DNA from: Cyanidium caldarium
Taxonomy: Eukaryota; Rhodophyta; Bangiophyceae; Cyanidiales; Cyanidiaceae
NCBI GenBank assembly: GCA_026184775.1
Contig: JANCYW010000005.1
Coordinates: forward strand, 334,501 to 398,500
Direction: 5' to 3'
Length of the DNA stretch: 64,000 nucleotides
Position numbers and translations under genes: made by a program. Shown here in pieces: positions 15,098 through 28,629 of this stretch; position 1 is the stretch's first letter, and each line of letters opens with the position of its first letter. The notes under the pieces were generated by a model. It was not told where the DNA came from. It did not search any database and was given only the letters and a program-made list of their open reading frames with translations.

Positions 15098-15691
15098 TCA
15101 TCGCAGCGTCTCCTCCTCCCCATTCACCTCTTCGGCTGCCAGCGCGTGGGCGACCCGCACCGCCTCGACCACCTCACGATATCGTTCATCGGACTGGTGT
15201 TCCTGGTCTTGCCCGGCATGCAGTCGCGTCAGCGCCTGCGCTAGCCAGCGCTCGGCATCGCGCAAACGCGCACGGCGCTCGGAGCGCCACCCCATGCCGC
15301 CCTCCAACTGCTGCAGCTCGTCCTCGTTGAATATGTTGCGCTCGCGCCACACTTGCAACAGACGCTGCAGGCGCGTGTCGTCGCCCACTTGTACCACTCC
15401 CTGTTGCAGCGCGGGCAGCAGGCGATGTTTCAGGCGATCCGTCGCTGCCGACGACGAACCCACCACCCTGCCGTTCTGCAACACGTCATTCATCACGTAC
15501 AGCAGCAACATCCTGTGCTCCGTGTCGCTCTCCCGAAAAACTTGCAGCCACTGCGACAGCAGCTCCTCCAGGAACGCCTCCGCCATGAACAGCAGGAAGA
15601 ACGACACCGACTGCACCGAGTCGGCCGCGGCCGTCAACCTCTCCAACCTCCGCCTCCAATTATCCGCATCATACCGCAAAGAAACGTCCAT
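15098..15691 (-). CDS. CID-domain protein (RNA polymerase II CTD-interacting; RPRD/Rtt103-like)
   Basis: The 197-aa product is essentially one CID fold plus a helical tail. VQSVSFFLLFMAEAF and the strongly typical HRMLLLYVMNDVLQN (about 60-74) correspond to the helices that grip the phosphorylated Pol II C-terminal repeat. LQRLLQVWRERNIF (about 108-121) is the conserved last helix of the domain. The acidic/helical tail may form a coiled coil as in RPRD1 proteins. No RNA-binding RRM is present, so it is not Nrd1- or SCAF-like in full. Expected role: transcription termination or 3'-end processing in the nucleus. Confidence 0.85.
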   Translation of the reverse strand: MDVSLRYDADNWRRRLERLTAAADSVQSVSFFLLFMAEAFLEELLSQWLQVFRESDTEHRMLLLYVMNDVLQNGRVVGSSSAATDRLKHRLLPALQQGVVQVGDDTRLQRLLQVWRERNIFNEDELQQLEGGMGWRSERRARLRDAERWLAQALTRLHAGQDQEHQSDERYREVVEAVRVAHALAAEEVNGEEETLR

Positions 15692-16183
15692 ACTTGGGTG
15701 GACCTAGAGCACCACACCGTTACACCGGTGCTGTTCCTCCCACAGCACGACCGCTGCGCCTGTGCGCCTCGCGCAACGCCCGTTCCGCTTTCGTCGTGCG
15801 CGACGATTTCGCTTCGCCGCCCGTTTCGGCGCGCGCGCGCTGAACGCTTCGCGTTGACGCCGCCGACGCGCACTCGGTGGACGAGGCATCGCGCGAGCGA
15901 GCCGAAACGGGCGGCGAAGCGATAGCGGAGAGGTCCAAGTGGCGCGGGACGTTGCGGGGCGAGTGGAGCGTTTGTGGTGGCGAGGCGCGCAGCTGCGCGC
16001 GCGCCTGCTAGAAGATTGTGTTGTCGGGGGCGTCGCGACCGGCGGTTGTCCGCGGATTCCCGACGCAGTCTGTGGTCTCGGCACGACTGGAACGCTCCTT
16101 GCACTTGACATCCAGCCGTGGGGCGCTCGCGCCTCTTCGTCATCGACATTCGCGTCTCATCGTCTCCTTCTTTCTCTCTCCCC
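15692..16183. other. Divergent promoter region between the CID gene and CK2 alpha, with large inverted repeats
   Basis: Most of this 492-bp spacer is occupied by nested complementary segments (see the ncRNA candidate at 15755-15998). The rest presumably holds both core promoters. A pyrimidine-rich tract (about 16160-16183) directly precedes the CK2 alpha ATG. No TATA box was found. Confidence 0.6.
15755..15998. ncRNA. Candidate structured RNA or cruciform element with nested inverted repeats
   Basis: Pairings read directly from the sequence are as follows. 15764-15772 pairs with 15980-15988 (9 bp). 15773-15782 pairs with 15945-15955 (10 bp, one bulge). 15784-15789 pairs with 15924-15929 (6 bp). 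15791-15796 and 15801-15806 form a hairpin with loop TGCG. 15809-15830 pairs perfectly with 15901-15922 (22 bp) and extends to 15840/15891 with two mismatches. Inside are hairpins 15843-15847/15851-15855 and 15860-15866/15874-15880 (one G-T). All nest without crossing. No RNase P, SRP, snRNA or snoRNA signature was recognised. Strand and transcription are unknown, and a DNA-level palindrome is the alternative. Confidence 0.45.
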
Positions 16184-17338
16184 ATGACCACGGTGCGGCG
16201 GCGAGGACCGCCGTCGATATCGCGCGTGTACGCCGAGGTCAACGCGCAAAAGCCGCGCGACTACTGGGACTACGAGAACCTGGTGGTCAACTGGGGCAAT
16301 CAGGATAACTACGAGGTGGTGCGAAAGGTTGGGCGCGGCAAGTACTCCGACGTGTTCGAGGGCGTGAACGTGATCAACGGCTCGCGGGTGATCATCAAGA
16401 TCCTGAAACCGGTCAAGAAGAAGAAGATCAAACGGGAGATCAAGATACTGGAGAACTTGTACGGCGGCCCGAATATCGTCAAGTTGCTGGATCTGTGTCG
16501 CGACCCGGTGTCCAAGACGCCCTCGCTCATCTTCGAGCACATCCAAAACGTCGACTTCAAGCAGCTGTACCCGTCGTTTACCCTGGACGAGGTGCGCTAT
16601 TATGTGTACGAGGTGCTGCGGGCGCTGGACTACTCGCACAGCATGGGCGTGATGCACCGCGATGTCAAACCGCACAATGTGATGATCGATCACGAGCGGC
16701 GACAGCTGCGGCTGATCGACTGGGGACTCGCCGAGTTTTATCACGCCGGCCGGCAGTACAACGTGCGGGTGGCATCGCGCTACTTCAAGGGACCCGAACT
16801 GCTGGTCGACCTGCAAGACTACGATTATTCGCTGGACATCTGGTCACTGGGATGCATGCTGGCGGGCATGATATTCCGAAAAGAGCCCTTCTTTCACGGC
16901 CACGACAACCAGGATCAGCTGGTGAAAATCGCCCGGGTGCTCGGCACCGACGAGCTGTTCGCCTACCTGAAGCGGTACGGCATTGAGTTGGGCGCTTCGT
17001 ACTTGAACTCAATTGGGCAGCATCCGAGGCGGCCATGGGAGCGCTTTGTCACCGCGGAGAACGCGCACCTGGTGTCGCCGGACGGAGTCGATCTGCTGGA
17101 ACGCATGCTACGCTACGATCATCAGGAGCGGTTGACGGCGCGTGAGTGCATGGCACATCCGTTTTTCGACACAGTGCGGCCGCCGACGGTCCCGGAACCG
17201 GTATCGACCGCGGAGGAGGGGGCGGTGGCGAACGGTGTACCGCCGCCGCCGACATCGGTGCGGTCGCATCAAGGCTCGGCGGAGGACGAGTCGGCCAGCA
17301 GGACGCCCACCGCGGCCACCGCCTCTGGGGCCCTCTAA
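16184..17338 (+). CDS. CKA: Casein kinase 2 catalytic subunit alpha
   Basis: The 384-aa Ser/Thr kinase begins at the first ATG, just after a pyrimidine tract. The N-terminal segment with SRVYAEVN and PRDYWDYE is characteristic of CK2 alpha. The catalytic lysine is K72 (VIIK), followed by the basic cluster [15 protein letters not shown] that binds regulatory beta subunits or acidic substrates. The loop HRDVKPHN (D160) is conserved, and the CK2-specific DWG at 179-181 replaces [27 protein letters not shown] is the constitutively active activation segment. The last 50 residues are Pro/Ser/Thr-rich and disordered, longer than in plants. It acts in nucleus and cytosol as a pleiotropic acidophilic kinase. 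Confidence 0.97.
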
Positions 17339-22827: not shown

Positions 22828-25134
22828 TTAGGCGCCGGTACGCCGATCCCGGGTCAGCGTCACGTCGATGGCCACTCGCAGCGGATCGGCTGTAGTGCTG
22901 GCCGCGTTCGCGGCGGCATGTCGTGGGGATCGACGGGTACGCCCGCGTCCGTCGCGCCGTTTCACCACTTGTCCGCTATCTGCCGGCGCCGCGGCGATGG
23001 CCGCCTTCCGGGCGACCAGGGCGCGCCACTCCAGAAAGCGCTGCGGGGTGATGCGCATCAGCGCACACAACTGCCGCTCGTTGGCATCCAAACACTCCAC
23101 TCCGGGCATGTCTTTCACGTACAGTATATGCCGGCGATGGGCGATGCCGTACGCGTCCACACCGCGGGGCACCGCCCGCGACGTCCGCCGATAAATCGCA
23201 TCCCAGTAGCGCACCTGGTCCGCCTCGTTGCCGTTCAGCCAGGTGAAACGTGATGGTCGCATGGAGGTGAGCGGCACGGATGCGGGCGCGTCCGCAGTAG
23301 TCTGCTCTCGGTTGACGGCCGTCCGTCGTACCCCACTAACATTGCCGCGCGTCAGCGTTCGTGAGGCCGCGCCCGACTTTTCCGCCTCGCCCACCTCCTC
23401 GCCGCGCGCATCGCCGCCCATTCGACTGGCCATCATTTCCGCCAGGGCGGTTGGCGGCAACGCGTCCGCGGCCGGTCCGGTCTCGTTGCCGCCGTACCGC
23501 CGCGCCACCTCCGTCTCCCATCGGCGCCAATCGGTCACCGTGTGCGCGCCGTCCTGCAACGCTTGGATCATGCGGTGTACCTCCTCAGCGATGCGCAGCT
23601 CGTGCACGGTTTGCGACACCCACACATCGTGCGCCGCCCCGCCGCCGTCGTTATCGGCCTGCGCCAGTCGCGCCAGCGGTAGCAGCATCCATTCTACCTC
23701 GCGCTCCAGCGACGACTGAGCCTTGAGGCGCGTCCGCGTGACACTCAGGTCGGTCAGACCGCGTTGCTGCACCACCGTCTTGCGCAACGCACGCTCCTCC
23801 AGCCAACGGGAATAAATCTGCAGCAGCTGCACTTTCCGTTCGCGCTCCTCCGCGGTGTCCTCCTCGGTGATCGACAAGTCGGCGATGACCGTCTCGGCGT
23901 CGTTCATGAACGGCTCGACGTCGAAATCCAGGCGTTTGGGCATGTAGCCGCTGAGAGTGCCGCGGCGCTGTCGCTCCGGCGGCGACACCGGCACACCGGG
24001 CACATCCATCGTCCCGCTATCCGCTTCGGCCGCTGTCGGGACTGGCTGGGGGTCCGGCGCGGCGTCCGCCGATTCCGACAGTTGCAGGCGCCGTTGCTTG
24101 CGTCTTCCGTAGAGCGGCCGGCCGCGCTGTCGTCGTCGATGTCGCCGCCGATGTTCGCGCATCGTGCTGCTGGCGCTGCTGTCGCCGGCGGCCTCGCGCT
24201 GCGCCGACCATCCGTCCGACTCGCCGTCGCTGCTCTCCGCCTCTACCGAGGAAGTCGGCGAGGCGCTGCCCACCAGGTTCTCTCCGGCAGCATCCGAGGA
24301 GGCCCCCAAGCTACCCCAACGCCGCTCACTGGCGGTCGGCGATGGAGGCGCGCGCCCGTCTGCCACCGCCGCGAAGCGCATTCCGACACGCAGCAGGTCG
24401 GGCGCCATGTTCGATGCCGCCGCATTGATCAGGGCCATTTCGCGAGCCACCTGAGAGGCGCGCGGTGATCCAGCCGGCGTGACAGGCGCTGCCGCGTGGC
24501 GCGTGGCCGATCGAGCCGCAACGCCACCGGCGGCCGTGATGGTGGCCACCGTGTTGGCCGCAGCATTCCCGGCTGTCGCTGCGGTGGCCGTCCCGCTCAC
24601 CATTCGGCGCATGTTGGGCAGCGGCGCGGTGTCCACCGCATTCAAATACACCTCCAGGTAATGCTGCTCGCAGCGCACTCGCGATTTGGTGCCCACGTAC
24701 TCGGCCACGGTGGCGAAATTCCCCGGCCCGTACACCTCCAGGCCCTCGAGCAGTCGCAGCTCCTCGTCGGCGCTCCAGTCGGCGGCAAACACCGCCGCAG
24801 TAACGTGCTCCACCACGCGGTACGGGTGCGTGGGCTCGTGCGGGTACAGCGTTGCGCCCACCGCAAAGCAGCTAATGCACAGATCAAAGTCCTTGCACTT
24901 GACACAGGAGATGCGGGTGCCGGTGGAGATGTCTCGCGCGCAGTAGTTGCAGCGGTACCGCGAGCCGTAAACGTGGGGCACATGAAAGGCACGCACCGTA
25001 CTCCCGTCTACCGCCACATTCCCTCCGGTACCCGTGGCCACGTCCCGCGCGTCTCGTGCCCTGACGTCTGCCCCCGACCCGGTGCGCGCCCGTCGTGAAC
25101 GGGTGGCCGCCGGGAAGGCGTTCGTCGGCGCCAT
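22828..25134 (-). CDS. ADA2: ADA2, transcriptional adaptor of SAGA-type histone acetyltransferase complexes
   Basis: The 768-aa protein activates GCN5 and tethers it to chromatin complexes. A ZZ zinc finger at about 60-105 shows the Cys pattern YRCNYC, SCVKC, LCISC and HEPTHPY. A SANT domain follows at about 116-163 (DWSADEELRLLEGLEVYGPGNF, then HYLEVYLN). A long disordered Ala/Ser/Arg region (180-400) precedes the conserved ADA2 block with PKRLDFDVEPFMNDAE and ERERKVQLLQIYSRWLEER. Near the C-terminus, LDANERQLCALMRITPQRFLEW resembles the SWIRM domain. It is longer than the usual 430-550 aa because of the low-complexity inserts. The ATG has good context. Confidence 0.94.
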   Translation of the reverse strand: MAPTNAFPAATRSRRARTGSGADVRARDARDVATGTGGNVAVDGSTVRAFHVPHVYGSRYRCNYCARDISTGTRISCVKCKDFDLCISCFAVGATLYPHEPTHPYRVVEHVTAAVFAADWSADEELRLLEGLEVYGPGNFATVAEYVGTKSRVRCEQHYLEVYLNAVDTAPLPNMRRMVSGTATAATAGNAAANTVATITAAGGVAARSATRHAAAPVTPAGSPRASQVAREMALINAAASNMAPDLLRVGMRFAAVADGRAPPSPTASERRWGSLGASSDAAGENLVGSASPTSSVEAESSDGESDGWSAQREAAGDSSASSTMREHRRRHRRRQRGRPLYGRRKQRRLQLSESADAAPDPQPVPTAAEADSGTMDVPGVPVSPPERQRRGTLSGYMPKRLDFDVEPFMNDAETVIADLSITEEDTAEERERKVQLLQIYSRWLEERALRKTVVQQRGLTDLSVTRTRLKAQSSLEREVEWMLLPLARLAQADNDGGGAAHDVWVSQTVHELRIAEEVHRMIQALQDGAHTVTDWRRWETEVARRYGGNETGPAADALPPTALAEMMASRMGGDARGEEVGEAEKSGAASRTLTRGNVSGVRRTAVNREQTTADAPASVPLTSMRPSRFTWLNGNEADQVRYWDAIYRRTSRAVPRGVDAYGIAHRRHILYVKDMPGVECLDANERQLCALMRITPQRFLEWRALVARKAAIAAAPADSGQVVKRRDGRGRTRRSPRHAAANAASTTADPLRVAIDVTLTRDRRTGA

Positions 25135-25747
25135 GCCCTCAGGACACTATTCTGGATCGAAACAGGAAATGCCTTCAAGCGCAGGTGGTGTCAGACAGTA
25201 CGTCCTCACTTGCCCTCAACGTCGCACAGTGTTGTGGAGGTCACTGTGTGCGTGAACACTAGGCGATGTCGACGCCCACAACAGGAGCGTCGCGTGAAAT
25301 CCGAACGCGATCGTCGATCGCGCAGAGAACGCGCGCGGGCAGTGCGGACGCGTGCAGGGAGAGGGCGCGAAGGACGACGATGAGAGAACTCTCAGGCACG
25401 AGGCGCCCTCTACGAGGTGCGAAATAGTGCCTCAAGCATGACGCATCCCACTGCTTCCATCGAATGGTTGAAGGCACACCACGACGTTGCCACGACTGCT
25501 TGGCGCCATTTACGAAATGGTACACCGTTGCATCTCTTTCTCGCGTGTGTTCTGGTCTCTCTACGGTGAAATAATCGATACAAACGCTCACTGCGGAACG
25601 GACGCCTGGTGTGCCTGCTCGGGAGGCGCCATCTTGCCTTTTTTTGGTAGAGGGGTTCTCTGCGCATTCCATCGCGCTGCCCTCCCACGCTTTGCCTTCC
25701 CCGAGCAGCTCGCAGCCGCATCACTCCGGGCATCTCGCGTGCATCGT
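25135..25747. other. Intergenic region between ADA2 and the GATA gene
   Basis: This holds the ADA2 promoter and the GATA gene 3' end (both minus strand). It contains a near-perfect palindrome CGCGATCG-T-CGATCGCG at 25306-25322, a small hairpin CCATTT/AAATGG near 25512-25526 and a T7 run near 25639. An ATG-initiated minus frame (25672-25259, 137 codons) fills much of it with balanced composition but no recognised domain. I treat that frame as unsupported. Confidence 0.45.
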
Positions 25748-26650
25748 TCACGTCTCGCCCTTGGCACAGGCCACTGCCGCAAAGGCGTTGAGCAGCGAGC
25801 GTGCGGCGGTGCGTTTGTTGGCGGGCAGCGGTGTGGGCGGCCAGTCCCACTCGGGCGTCACCGGCGAGTGCGGCTGTTGCGCGCCGGCTGGCGTCGGCGG
25901 CTGCCGGGATAGGCGGATACCCCTCGGTGCGGCTGTGGTCTTGAAGGCGATCGCTCGCGGAGATGGTGATGGTGCGACGGTGGTGGCGGCGGCGGCGGTG
26001 CCGGGCTTGCCGTGCCTCCGAAATAAATGCGCTGGGCGATGCGAGCCGGTGCGTTTCCAGTATTTGCCACAGGCGTTGCATAGCGGGCGGCTGCGATCGC
26101 GACCTTGCAGATACCAGTTGGATGACCGAGTCTGGCCGCAGTTTTGGCAACGGCGCGCAGGCGCGGATGCGGCCGGCATCGCTGGTGGCGTCGTTGGGGC
26201 GGCTGGCGGGGAGCACGTGCTCTCGGTGGTGCTCTGTCGCGAGGAGATGTCGCCGGCGAGCACATGATCTGGCGGCACGTCCATCCGGCTCTGATCGCAT
26301 GACGGCACATTCGGTGCGCGCGGCAGTGGAAAGTAGTCGGCCAACGGTGGCAGCCGCATGGGGTGTGCCGCATACGGGCCACCGAGCGACTGCGGCCAGG
26401 TGACCAACCTGAGCATCGCCGGCGGGACAGGGCACGGATACGGCGCGCCGGCGTAGATACTGCGCGTCCAGCCGTATTGCGGGGTCAGGCCGGTTGGTTC
26501 CATCGGGCGAGGCGTTGGCGGAAGCGTTGGCAGCGGCGGCAGCGGCACGCCGGGGTGGCGATTGTGGGTGGCCCAGGCCAGCGAGGCTCCTGCCGCGTAA
26601 TCATACGCGAACGGCGGGTCGCTCAGTGAGACCTGGGATGGAGGAAACAT
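25748..26650 (-). CDS. GATA-type zinc finger protein
   Basis: This is a 300-aa probable transcription factor. One zinc finger has C168, C171, C191 and C194 in CQNC...CNAC, followed by the basic helix GKYWKRTGSHRP. The spacing is CX2C-X19-CX2C, between the standard 17/18 and the 20 seen in some plant factors, and the usual TPLWR is changed to SSNWY. The N-terminal 160 residues are Pro/Ala/Ser-rich and disordered, and the C-terminal tail is also Pro/Ala-rich. DNA contact at WGATAR-type sites is expected for the family but not shown here. The initiating ATG is the only reasonable one. Confidence 0.85.
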   Translation of the reverse strand: MFPPSQVSLSDPPFAYDYAAGASLAWATHNRHPGVPLPPLPTLPPTPRPMEPTGLTPQYGWTRSIYAGAPYPCPVPPAMLRLVTWPQSLGGPYAAHPMRLPPLADYFPLPRAPNVPSCDQSRMDVPPDHVLAGDISSRQSTTESTCSPPAAPTTPPAMPAASAPARRCQNCGQTRSSNWYLQGRDRSRPLCNACGKYWKRTGSHRPAHLFRRHGKPGTAAAATTVAPSPSPRAIAFKTTAAPRGIRLSRQPPTPAGAQQPHSPVTPEWDWPPTPLPANKRTAARSLLNAFAAVACAKGET

Positions 26651-27585
26651 GGCGTGAGTGCGCTCGCGAATGGACGTCAGAATTCAGATTAGAGCGCTGC
26701 ACCCCGGGATCCCGTACAGCAACCCTGTAATAGCCTATGGCAATAGCTCGAACGTGGGAAGGCCTAGGCGCACTCGCCGCTGCTACACGGCAATTGTATG
26801 TAATTGTGGAAATGCCTCGGTGGGTGCCGCGGGTGTTGTTGATGCTTTCCGGCAACGATCTTGTCGGAGAAGCGCACCACCACGTTGAAGGAAGAAAACG
26901 AGGCACGCATTGCTCGTGGGCGCGCCTATTCTTGGCGGCGCGCGTTGGCGAGCGCGCCAATCCGGTTTTCGCGTCTACGGTGCCCGCGAATTTGTGACGA
27001 CGAACACGCCAGCGCGTGACGGAGTGCCGCTCTGCATGCGCTCGTGAGAGAAATGTTGCCATTTCGACCCAGCAGGTCCTGGCAAGACGACAACGCGGGA
27101 AAAGTAGGGAGAGAGAGACGAGGGATGAGCGGAGGTGCAGATTGCGTGCACACGAGTCGGTGGCACTCTCTGCTGATGACGCGTGGGCGTCGCGGGAAAC
27201 TGAAGTAGACTCTGCAAATTCGATAAGAGCATGGGCGGTAACGCAGCGGCCGAAAGATGCTTCAAGATGCCGCCCTCGATGTCGGTTGCATCCCTGATTC
27301 GGCCTTTTGCATTCCTCGCAATGCGAACCGACTCATCCTTCATGCCCAAAATGCGACAACCTTGCACACAGAACCTCGAGGGGAGCACTCCCCAGGTCAT
27401 CGTGTCGAGCGTTTCGCGCGTGCGTCATCGCTCGCTCTTCCCCGCACCGCCCGAGCCTCCTCGCTCGGGAGACTGCTCGACTGGCACTTGCAGTCACCAA
27501 TCCCCATCCGGAGCGCCCATCGTCACCGCGCCACTTGCATTCGTCTCAACGCTCCCACTTCTTGCGGTGCACTGCCCACCCTCCC
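26651..27585. other. Divergent promoter region between the GATA gene and the HAD hydrolase
   Basis: About 935 bp, visibly less GC-rich in parts (26690-26840). It includes a 10-bp palindrome CGGGATCCCG near 26704, an AT-containing inverted repeat CAATT/AATTG near 26791-26806, and a hairpin TTGGCG-AGCG-CGCCAA at 26945-26960. Open frames here (minus 27062-26601 and 27400-26975) have no recognisable domain. I see no tRNA or other RNA gene. Confidence 0.45.
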
Positions 27586-28629
27586 ATGTCTTTCGGCGAG
27601 CAGCCATCGGACGGGCGGCTGGTGTACGCGCTGGACTTTGACGGGGTGCTGTGTGACTCGGTAGACGAATCCAGCCGCAGCGCATATAGGGCGGCGCTGT
27701 TGGCGTTTCCGGAACGACTGAAAGGGCCGCGGTGGACCGGGAGGCGTCTCGACGCGGACGCTGACCCGCCGCCAGCACCATCCGACGCCAAGGCAGCGAC
27801 GACCTCGTCTTCAGAGGACGCAGCGGCTGCGGGCCGGTCATCCTCGACAGAGACTGCCACGAGACGGGTAGGCCAGCTGCCCATCGCGTCGTGGCTGCTG
27901 CAAGTGCAGCCGCCGCAGTGGATGCTGAACGCGATGCGCAAACTACGGCCGGTCATCGAGACCGGCTACGAGAACGTGCTGCTGGTGCGGCTGCTCGCCG
28001 AGGAGCACATGGCGGCGGAACGCTCGGAACGGGGCATGCGCCCGTTGACGGTGGGCGAAATTGCCGCCAACTGGCAGTCGCTGCTGCACGACAAGCTGCT
28101 GCGCGACTGGGGCCTGGACGCCACCGATGTCGCCGAGCTGTTTGCGCGCGTGCGCGACGACTGGATCGAGCGTGACCTTTCCAGTTGGGTACAGTCCAGC
28201 CCGCTGTACCCCGGTGTGGCCGACGCCCTGAATCTGAGCCAGGAGACCGTGTACGTGGTGACCACAAAGAACGAGCGTTTCGTGCGGTTGTTGCTGGAGC
28301 ACGGCGGCGTCCGACCGGAGCGCATCCCGCCCGAGCGCATTTACGGCTTGGACCGGCGCATGAGCAAGATCGGTGTGTTGAAAGAGATACTGCGACGGGA
28401 GGAGGCGCCGCGCGAGGAGGGTGCCGCGAGCGCGCGCCGAGTTACCGTGCATTTCGTGGAGGATCGCGTGGAAACGCTCGAGTCGGCGTCGCTGTCGCTG
28501 CTAGGCGCACCCATACAGTACTACATGGCGATGTGGGGATATCACGACGCGTCACAACAGGCGCGCGCCGAGCGGCATCCGTTTATTCATCTGCTGGACT
28601 TGCCCACTTTCACCATGAAACTGCGGTGA
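27586..28629 (+). CDS. HAD-superfamily hydrolase of the cyanobacterial/plastid type
   Basis: This 347-aa HAD-fold protein has the nucleophile motif YALDFDGVLCD (D17, D19), motif II at VYVVTTKN, and motif IV in VHFVEDRVETLES. The segment LRPVIETGYENVLLVRLL and the late WGYHD...HPFIHLLDL match a family I know from cyanobacteria and plastid-bearing eukaryotes whose substrate is undefined. A 60-residue Ala/Ser/Asp-rich insert (about 50-105) sits in the cap. No transit peptide is evident from this ATG; the upstream frame is open but has no ATG, so location is uncertain. Phosphatase activity is expected from the fold only. Confidence 0.8.
   Translation: MSFGEQPSDGRLVYALDFDGVLCDSVDESSRSAYRAALLAFPERLKGPRWTGRRLDADADPPPAPSDAKAATTSSSEDAAAAGRSSSTETATRRVGQLPIASWLLQVQPPQWMLNAMRKLRPVIETGYENVLLVRLLAEEHMAAERSERGMRPLTVGEIAANWQSLLHDKLLRDWGLDATDVAELFARVRDDWIERDLSSWVQSSPLYPGVADALNLSQETVYVVTTKNERFVRLLLEHGGVRPERIPPERIYGLDRRMSKIGVLKEILRREEAPREEGAASARRVTVHFVEDRVETLESASLSLLGAPIQYYMAMWGYHDASQQARAERHPFIHLLDLPTFTMKLR

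What the first reader, a model, noticed from the sequence alone, without database searches (positions are those of the whole stretch)
15755..15998. Large nested inverted-repeat structure with a perfect 22-bp stem between the CID gene and CK2 alpha
Arms 15809-15830 and 15901-15922 are perfectly complementary over 22 bp, and over 32 bp with two mismatches. The 50-nt apex holds two further hairpins, and outside the stem three more segments pair in nested order (6, 10 and 9 bp), plus a hairpin with loop TGCG. A perfect 22-bp repeat at this spacing is not expected by chance in 64 kb, even with GC bias. I find no RNase P, SRP, snRNA or tRNA signature. It may be an undescribed structured ncRNA, a hairpin precursor, or a cruciform/replication element in a shared promoter.
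Basis: seen in the sequence. Interest (0 to 1): 0.75.

Follow-up and report, generated by a model that had tools for sequence, protein, structure and literature searches.

The report
Lone hairpin repeat between two genes
A single-copy, near-perfect reverse-complement stretch of DNA about 120 bases long sits in the gap between two oppositely oriented genes of a tiny-genome red alga; it is too regular to be chance but is most likely a leftover of a copying error rather than a new functional RNA.

Summary
The repeat is real: arms 15804-15840 and 15891-15927 (33 of 37 complementary; 22 perfect; 50-nt apex). It has the highest ungapped inverted-repeat score in 264 kb, unmatched by 10 shuffles; by gapped alignment a foldback on C2 is stronger. 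The rest of the described structure fails controls: the apex folds no better than its shuffles (z +0.2/+0.7) and 5.5-8% of shuffled flanks are as complementary. So this is one stem, not a nested fold.

The host matches Cyanidium caldarium 063 E5. The stem lies in a 492-bp divergent spacer between a CID-domain gene and a kinase gene. The spacer looks non-coding; the repeat is single copy, far below Rfam cut-offs. No Piwi domain was found; Dicer/Argonaute loss is published. All four arm mismatches are transversions giving no G-U pair.

Best reading: a reverse-complement duplication made by replication template switching, lightly decayed, probably neutral. No related genome was reached, so covariation is untested. 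In passing: a family of inverted-repeat elements at 13 or more loci.

The parts
15804..15840 (+). left arm of the inverted repeat (perfect core 15809-15830)
15891..15927 (-). right arm of the inverted repeat (perfect core 15901-15922)
15841..15890 (.). 50-nt apex; its folding is no better than that of its own shuffles
15755..15803 (.). left outer flank said to pair in nested order; complementarity near chance level
15928..15998 (.). right outer flank said to pair in nested order; complementarity near chance level
15692..16183 (.). 492-bp divergent intergenic spacer that holds the repeat; all six frames have negative codon scores
15098..15691 (-). CID-domain protein gene (197 aa, PF04818, 66 bits)
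16184..17338 (+). protein kinase gene (384 aa, PF00069, 205 bits); named CK2 alpha by recall of its sequence signature, not by a call

Best explanation
A single-copy quasi-palindrome made at the DNA level: during replication the nascent strand switched template once and copied roughly 37 bases of the local sequence in reverse complement about 50 bases away, giving a perfect hairpin-capable stem in one event. Four later substitutions, outside the inner 22 bp, have begun to erode it. It sits in a divergent spacer that looks non-coding, where such a change is tolerated, and most likely has no selected function now. Shown: the stem, its non-random nature, single copy at the sensitivity of the searches, and no clear structure beyond the stem. 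Inferred: the template-switch event and neutrality.
For: Stem far beyond shuffles, while apex and flanks are near chance: one duplication explains nearly all of the signal. Single copy in the 8.79-Mb genome by DNA search of the 271-bp region and of the whole spacer, and by a 27-base pattern with up to 3 mismatches, so not a dispersed element that these searches can see. The arms differ by 4 transversions and none gives a G-U pair on either strand, which does not look like a stem kept by RNA-level selection. A 22-bp uninterrupted Watson-Crick helix is longer than the 2-10 consecutive pairs that PMC8794818 calls characteristic of RNA helices, and that paper reports template switching making perfect stems in one event (abstract and start of the text; one section). 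A covariance model of the hairpin over 289,740 held bases finds itself on both strands and then nothing below E 0.065.
Against: No outgroup sequence was available, so the ancestral state without the stem has not been seen. Four mismatches are too few to test the mutation spectrum. Template-switch origin does not itself exclude function: the same paper describes microRNA genes born that way. The stem's window ranks first of 294 spacer windows for folding z in one gene map, so selection on it is possible. Flank folding keeps a weak excess (z -1.4 to -3.7). The margin over shuffles on gapped self-BLAST is small (53.6 against 49.1 bits).
Confidence: 0.52

Rival explanations
1. A lineage-specific structured non-coding RNA, or a structured leader in the transcript of one of the two flanking genes, whose long stem is the protein-binding or stability element.
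For: z -4.6/-4.8 for the region; first of 294 spacer windows; spacer of 492 bp against a reported mean of 319.7 bp; non-coding scores; weak flank excess on the minus strand.
Against: Only the stem clearly exceeds chance; apex at z +0.2/+0.7. No Rfam match near a gathering score: 8 matches up to E 10, the best at 30.2 bits (E 0.002) where the microRNA family MIR918 needs 268, which I read as a generic long-hairpin match. No wobble-type changes. No relative in the genome. The two strands have similar z, so no strand preference.
Confidence: 0.2
2. A DNA-level cis element of the shared divergent promoter: inverted copies of a factor site (CGCCCGTTYCG occurs at 15777, 15818 and, inverted, in the right arm) that serve both genes, with or without cruciform formation.
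For: Position between divergent start codons; a second direct copy, 10 of 11 matching, at 15777-15787.
Against: Of 12 arm words counted in the 264-kb sample, none is clearly enriched in spacers: for example CCGTTTCGG 1 found, 1.3 expected; CGCTTCG 20 found, 17.1 expected; CCCGTTTC 4 found, 2.1 expected (that gene map seems to leave this spacer itself out, since it counts only one CCGTTTCGG). The arms are far longer than a usual factor site. A 50-nt GC-rich centre is unfavourable for cruciform extrusion (general knowledge, not tested).
Confidence: 0.15
3. A solo, decayed foldback or terminal-inverted-repeat element, like the 427-bp foldback on C2 but from another family.
For: The same genome carries such a family, so foldback elements exist here.
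Against: No second copy found; no match at E 1 between the C2 element and 15601-16250; no significant complementarity beyond the 37-bp arms. Target-site duplications were not searched for at this locus.
Confidence: 0.1

Closest known systems
Template-switch-born hairpins and quasi-palindromes (PMC8794818; abstract, start of text and one section seen)
   Same: Single-copy perfect reverse-complement stem with a short loop, with scattered mismatches
   Different: No phylogeny here to place the event; not linked to a known RNA gene
microRNA / long hairpin RNA precursors
   Same: Long stem with a 50-nt apex
   Different: Loss of DCL1 and AGO1 reported for Cyanidiophyceae (PMC9812998, passage seen); no Piwi domain found; no Rfam gathering match
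Foldback / MITE-like inverted-repeat elements
   Same: Inverted repeat in an intergenic spacer
   Different: No other copy found in the genome

Membership tests
Template-switch quasi-palindrome | Reverse-complement copy of nearby sequence, beyond chance | tested here: met
   smaller margin on gapped self-BLAST
Template-switch quasi-palindrome | Outgroup lacks one arm, so a single event is inferred on the tree | not testable with these tools
   no other Cyanidium genome is held; scans with the kinase protein gave no relatives
Structured non-coding RNA | Base pairs kept by compensatory changes in relatives | not testable with these tools
   no relatives found
Structured non-coding RNA | Structure beyond a single stem more stable than shuffles | tested here: inconclusive
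   apex z +0.2/+0.7; flanks z -1.4 to -3.7 depending on boundaries and strand; flank alignment reached by 5.5-8% of shuffles
Known Rfam families (4227 models) | Score at or above the gathering score | tested here: not met
   only a tRNA at 165-247 in the whole window; 8 sub-threshold matches around the locus
microRNA precursor | Silencing machinery (Argonaute/Piwi) in the genome | tested here: not met
   PF02171: 0 matches; the control rang in 1 of 14 genomes, Methanocaldococcus jannaschii; published loss of DCL1 and AGO1
microRNA precursor | Precise small RNAs from the arms | not testable with these tools
   no RNA-seq available
Foldback / MITE element | Several copies in the genome | tested here: not met
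Foldback / MITE element | Target-site duplication at the ends | not tested
   no defined element ends at this locus
Protein-coding sequence | Codon usage of the genome's genes, or protein relatives | tested here: not met
   six frames -0.07 to -0.21 against +0.35 (CID) and +0.33 (kinase), though 5% of 135-codon gene pieces fall below -0.11; 135-aa ORF: none of 1012 candidates at E 0.001; three ORFs over the spacer without Pfam match

The most novel reading that the evidence does not exclude
A Cyanidium-specific hairpin RNA transcribed from the divergent CID/kinase promoter, kept in an alga without Dicer or Argonaute, acting as a double-stranded-RNA-like regulator of its two neighbours.
Probability: 0.07. 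Interest if true: 0.55.

Novelty: new member of a known kind. Interest (0 to 1): 0.2.

Why it matters
Mostly as a calibrated negative: an eye-catching nested structure in a GC-rich spacer reduces to one non-random stem. If a sister strain lacks one arm, the locus would be a clean example of a one-step hairpin birth in a streamlined eukaryotic genome reported to lack Dicer and Argonaute; if the arms co-vary instead, it would be a new RNA.

Tried and rejected
Rfam matches below gathering score (8 up to E 10; MIR918 on both strands at E 0.002 and 0.004, L-myc IRES at E 0.0045, MIR8788 and others) were rejected although three have small E-values: their scores (25.5-30.2 bits) are far below the curated cut-offs (60-268), and I read the microRNA hits as what any long GC-rich stem gives. 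SRP RNA: one weak match on C8 (27.7 bits, cut-off 70); that model also rang below its cut-off in 5 of 14 control genomes, so this is a candidate only. RNase MRP RNA: a clear match on C4 (94.2 bits, cut-off 50). RNase P (RF00009), U3, U6 and U2 gave nothing, but their controls rang nowhere, so these say nothing about absence. Coding explanation rejected. Enrichment of arm words in spacers: none clear among 12 words. Comparative search with the kinase protein in genome contigs and viral contigs: 6 and 3 pattern matches, none a relative. The first run of the spacer ranking (209 windows) did not list the finding's spacer, presumably because of its gene map; it was replaced (87 spacers, 294 windows), which in turn does not list the C2 foldback among its top 14 windows although that element folds at z -19.1/-21.6, so 'first of 294' holds only for the windows of that map. 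GC skew of 28 divergent spacers shows no strong left-right pattern (left below right in 17 of 28). Literature, listings only unless said otherwise: Cyanidium caldarium with palindrom gave 7 papers, none of whose titles concerns the Cyanidium nuclear genome; with casein kinase and promoter, 0 papers; some searches were used for orientation. No claim is made that the locus or the element family is absent from print.

Full report
Setting. The window is C5:334501-398500 of an 8,787,356-base genome in 20 contigs, with 65.2-66.0% GC in the three parts read. The repeat lies in the 492-bp spacer 15692-16183 between a CID-domain gene on the minus strand (15098-15691, PF04818) and a protein kinase gene on the plus strand (16184-17338, PF00069). 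The name CK2 alpha is by recall of the sequence signature. The mean intergenic length reported for this species is 319.7 bp.

The observation. Arms 15804-15840 and 15891-15927 are complementary at 33 of 37 positions, with a perfect 22-bp core. In 264 kb (the window plus 100 kb each of C1 and C2) an ungapped scan with +1/-2 scoring found 3 inverted repeats scoring 15 or more: this one at 26, one at 21 on C2, and one simple repeat at 15; ten dinucleotide shuffles of the same sequence reached at most 17. On a gapped self-BLAST it scores 53.6 bits, against maxima of 49.1, 38.3 and 39.2 in three shuffles, so by that measure the margin is smaller, and the C2 repeat is far stronger at 199 bits. The region 15740-16010 folds at -169.8 and -158.1 kcal/mol on the two strands, z -4.6 and -4.8, 0 of 200 shuffles each. 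Among 1063 sliding windows of the 64 kb, the two that deviate most from the energy expected for their GC content lie over this locus (z -3.5 and -2.9; the next is -2.7). It ranks first of 294 spacer windows in the 264 kb by shuffle z (-4.6, 40 shuffles each), with the limitation that this list does not show the C2 foldback.

What is not there. I separated the structure into stem, apex and flanks. Shuffling the left arm alone destroys the signal (z -7.5 and -9.3). Shuffling the apex alone changes nothing (106 and 149 of 200 shuffles fold at least as well). Plain complementarity of the flanks is reached by 55 to 80 of 1000 shuffles. The nested outer pairings are therefore weak at best, and the finding reduces in the main to one stem.

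Identity. It appears to be single copy: a DNA search with 271 bp and one with the whole spacer return only the place itself and its own inverted match, and a 27-base pattern with up to three mismatches returns only the two arms. A covariance model of the hairpin, searched over 29 held sources (289,740 bases), finds itself on both strands; the next match has E 0.065. No Rfam family reaches its gathering score in the window except a tRNA at 165-247; permissive matches at the locus score 30.2 bits or less, three of them with E-values of 0.002 to 0.0045 but far under their cut-offs. The six frames of the spacer have negative codon scores, and the 135-aa ORF over it has no relative among 1012 candidates. 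RNase MRP RNA and a weak SRP RNA candidate are found on other chromosomes. A Piwi domain is not found, in line with the published loss of DCL1 and AGO1.

Mechanism. The four arm differences are A/C, T/A, G/T and G/T, all transversions, none forming a G-U pair on either strand. With so few changes this is only a hint, but together with an uninterrupted 22-bp Watson-Crick helix, an ordinary apex, near-ordinary flanks, and single copy, it fits a reverse-complement duplication by template switching, which PMC8794818 (abstract, start of text and one section seen) reports can make perfect stems in one event. The same paper describes microRNA genes born in this way, so such an origin would not by itself rule out function. 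I put the neutral template-switch reading at about one half, and leave a fifth for a real structured RNA because neither transcripts nor relatives could be examined. Scans for relatives through the neighbouring kinase gave none.

By-product. The other strong repeat of the sample, C2:183165-183591, is a 427-bp foldback (199 bits; z -19.1 and -21.6). Parts of it recur at 12 further loci on C6, C7, C8, C9, C10, C16 and C19 at 69-91% identity (a lower bound by the tool's own statement). One copy on C10 has inverted ends of about 105 bp some 600 bp apart, so it looks like a family of non-autonomous inverted-repeat elements; that label is inference. It shows no match at E 1 to the finding's spacer.

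Noticed in passing
L024:3165-3591 (C2:183165-183591); related places on C6, C7, C8, C9, C10, C16, C19: A 427-bp near-complete foldback (z -19.1/-21.6), one of at least 13 loci of a dispersed family; the C10 copy spans about 800 bp with inverted ends of about 105 bp. Looks like a MITE-like element; no Rfam match at gathering score in the 100 kb around the C2 copy.
   Followed up: partly
window 25255-25494: Second-best folding window among the spacers mapped in the 264 kb (z -4.2), in a long stretch without a mapped gene; no Rfam match up to E 0.5 in 24900-27700 and no long inverted repeat.
   Followed up: partly
L033:1501-1810 minus (C4:158457-158766): Clear RNase MRP RNA gene, 94.2 bits against a cut-off of 50.
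   Followed up: yes
L005:1501-1702 minus (C8:476530-476731): Weak SRP RNA candidate, 27.7 bits against a cut-off of 70, matching model positions 102-249.
   Followed up: partly
own genome, G000: Rfam U6 and U2 models give no match in the whole genome, although introns are reported for the species; the controls did not ring either, so this may be a limit of the search.
   Followed up: no
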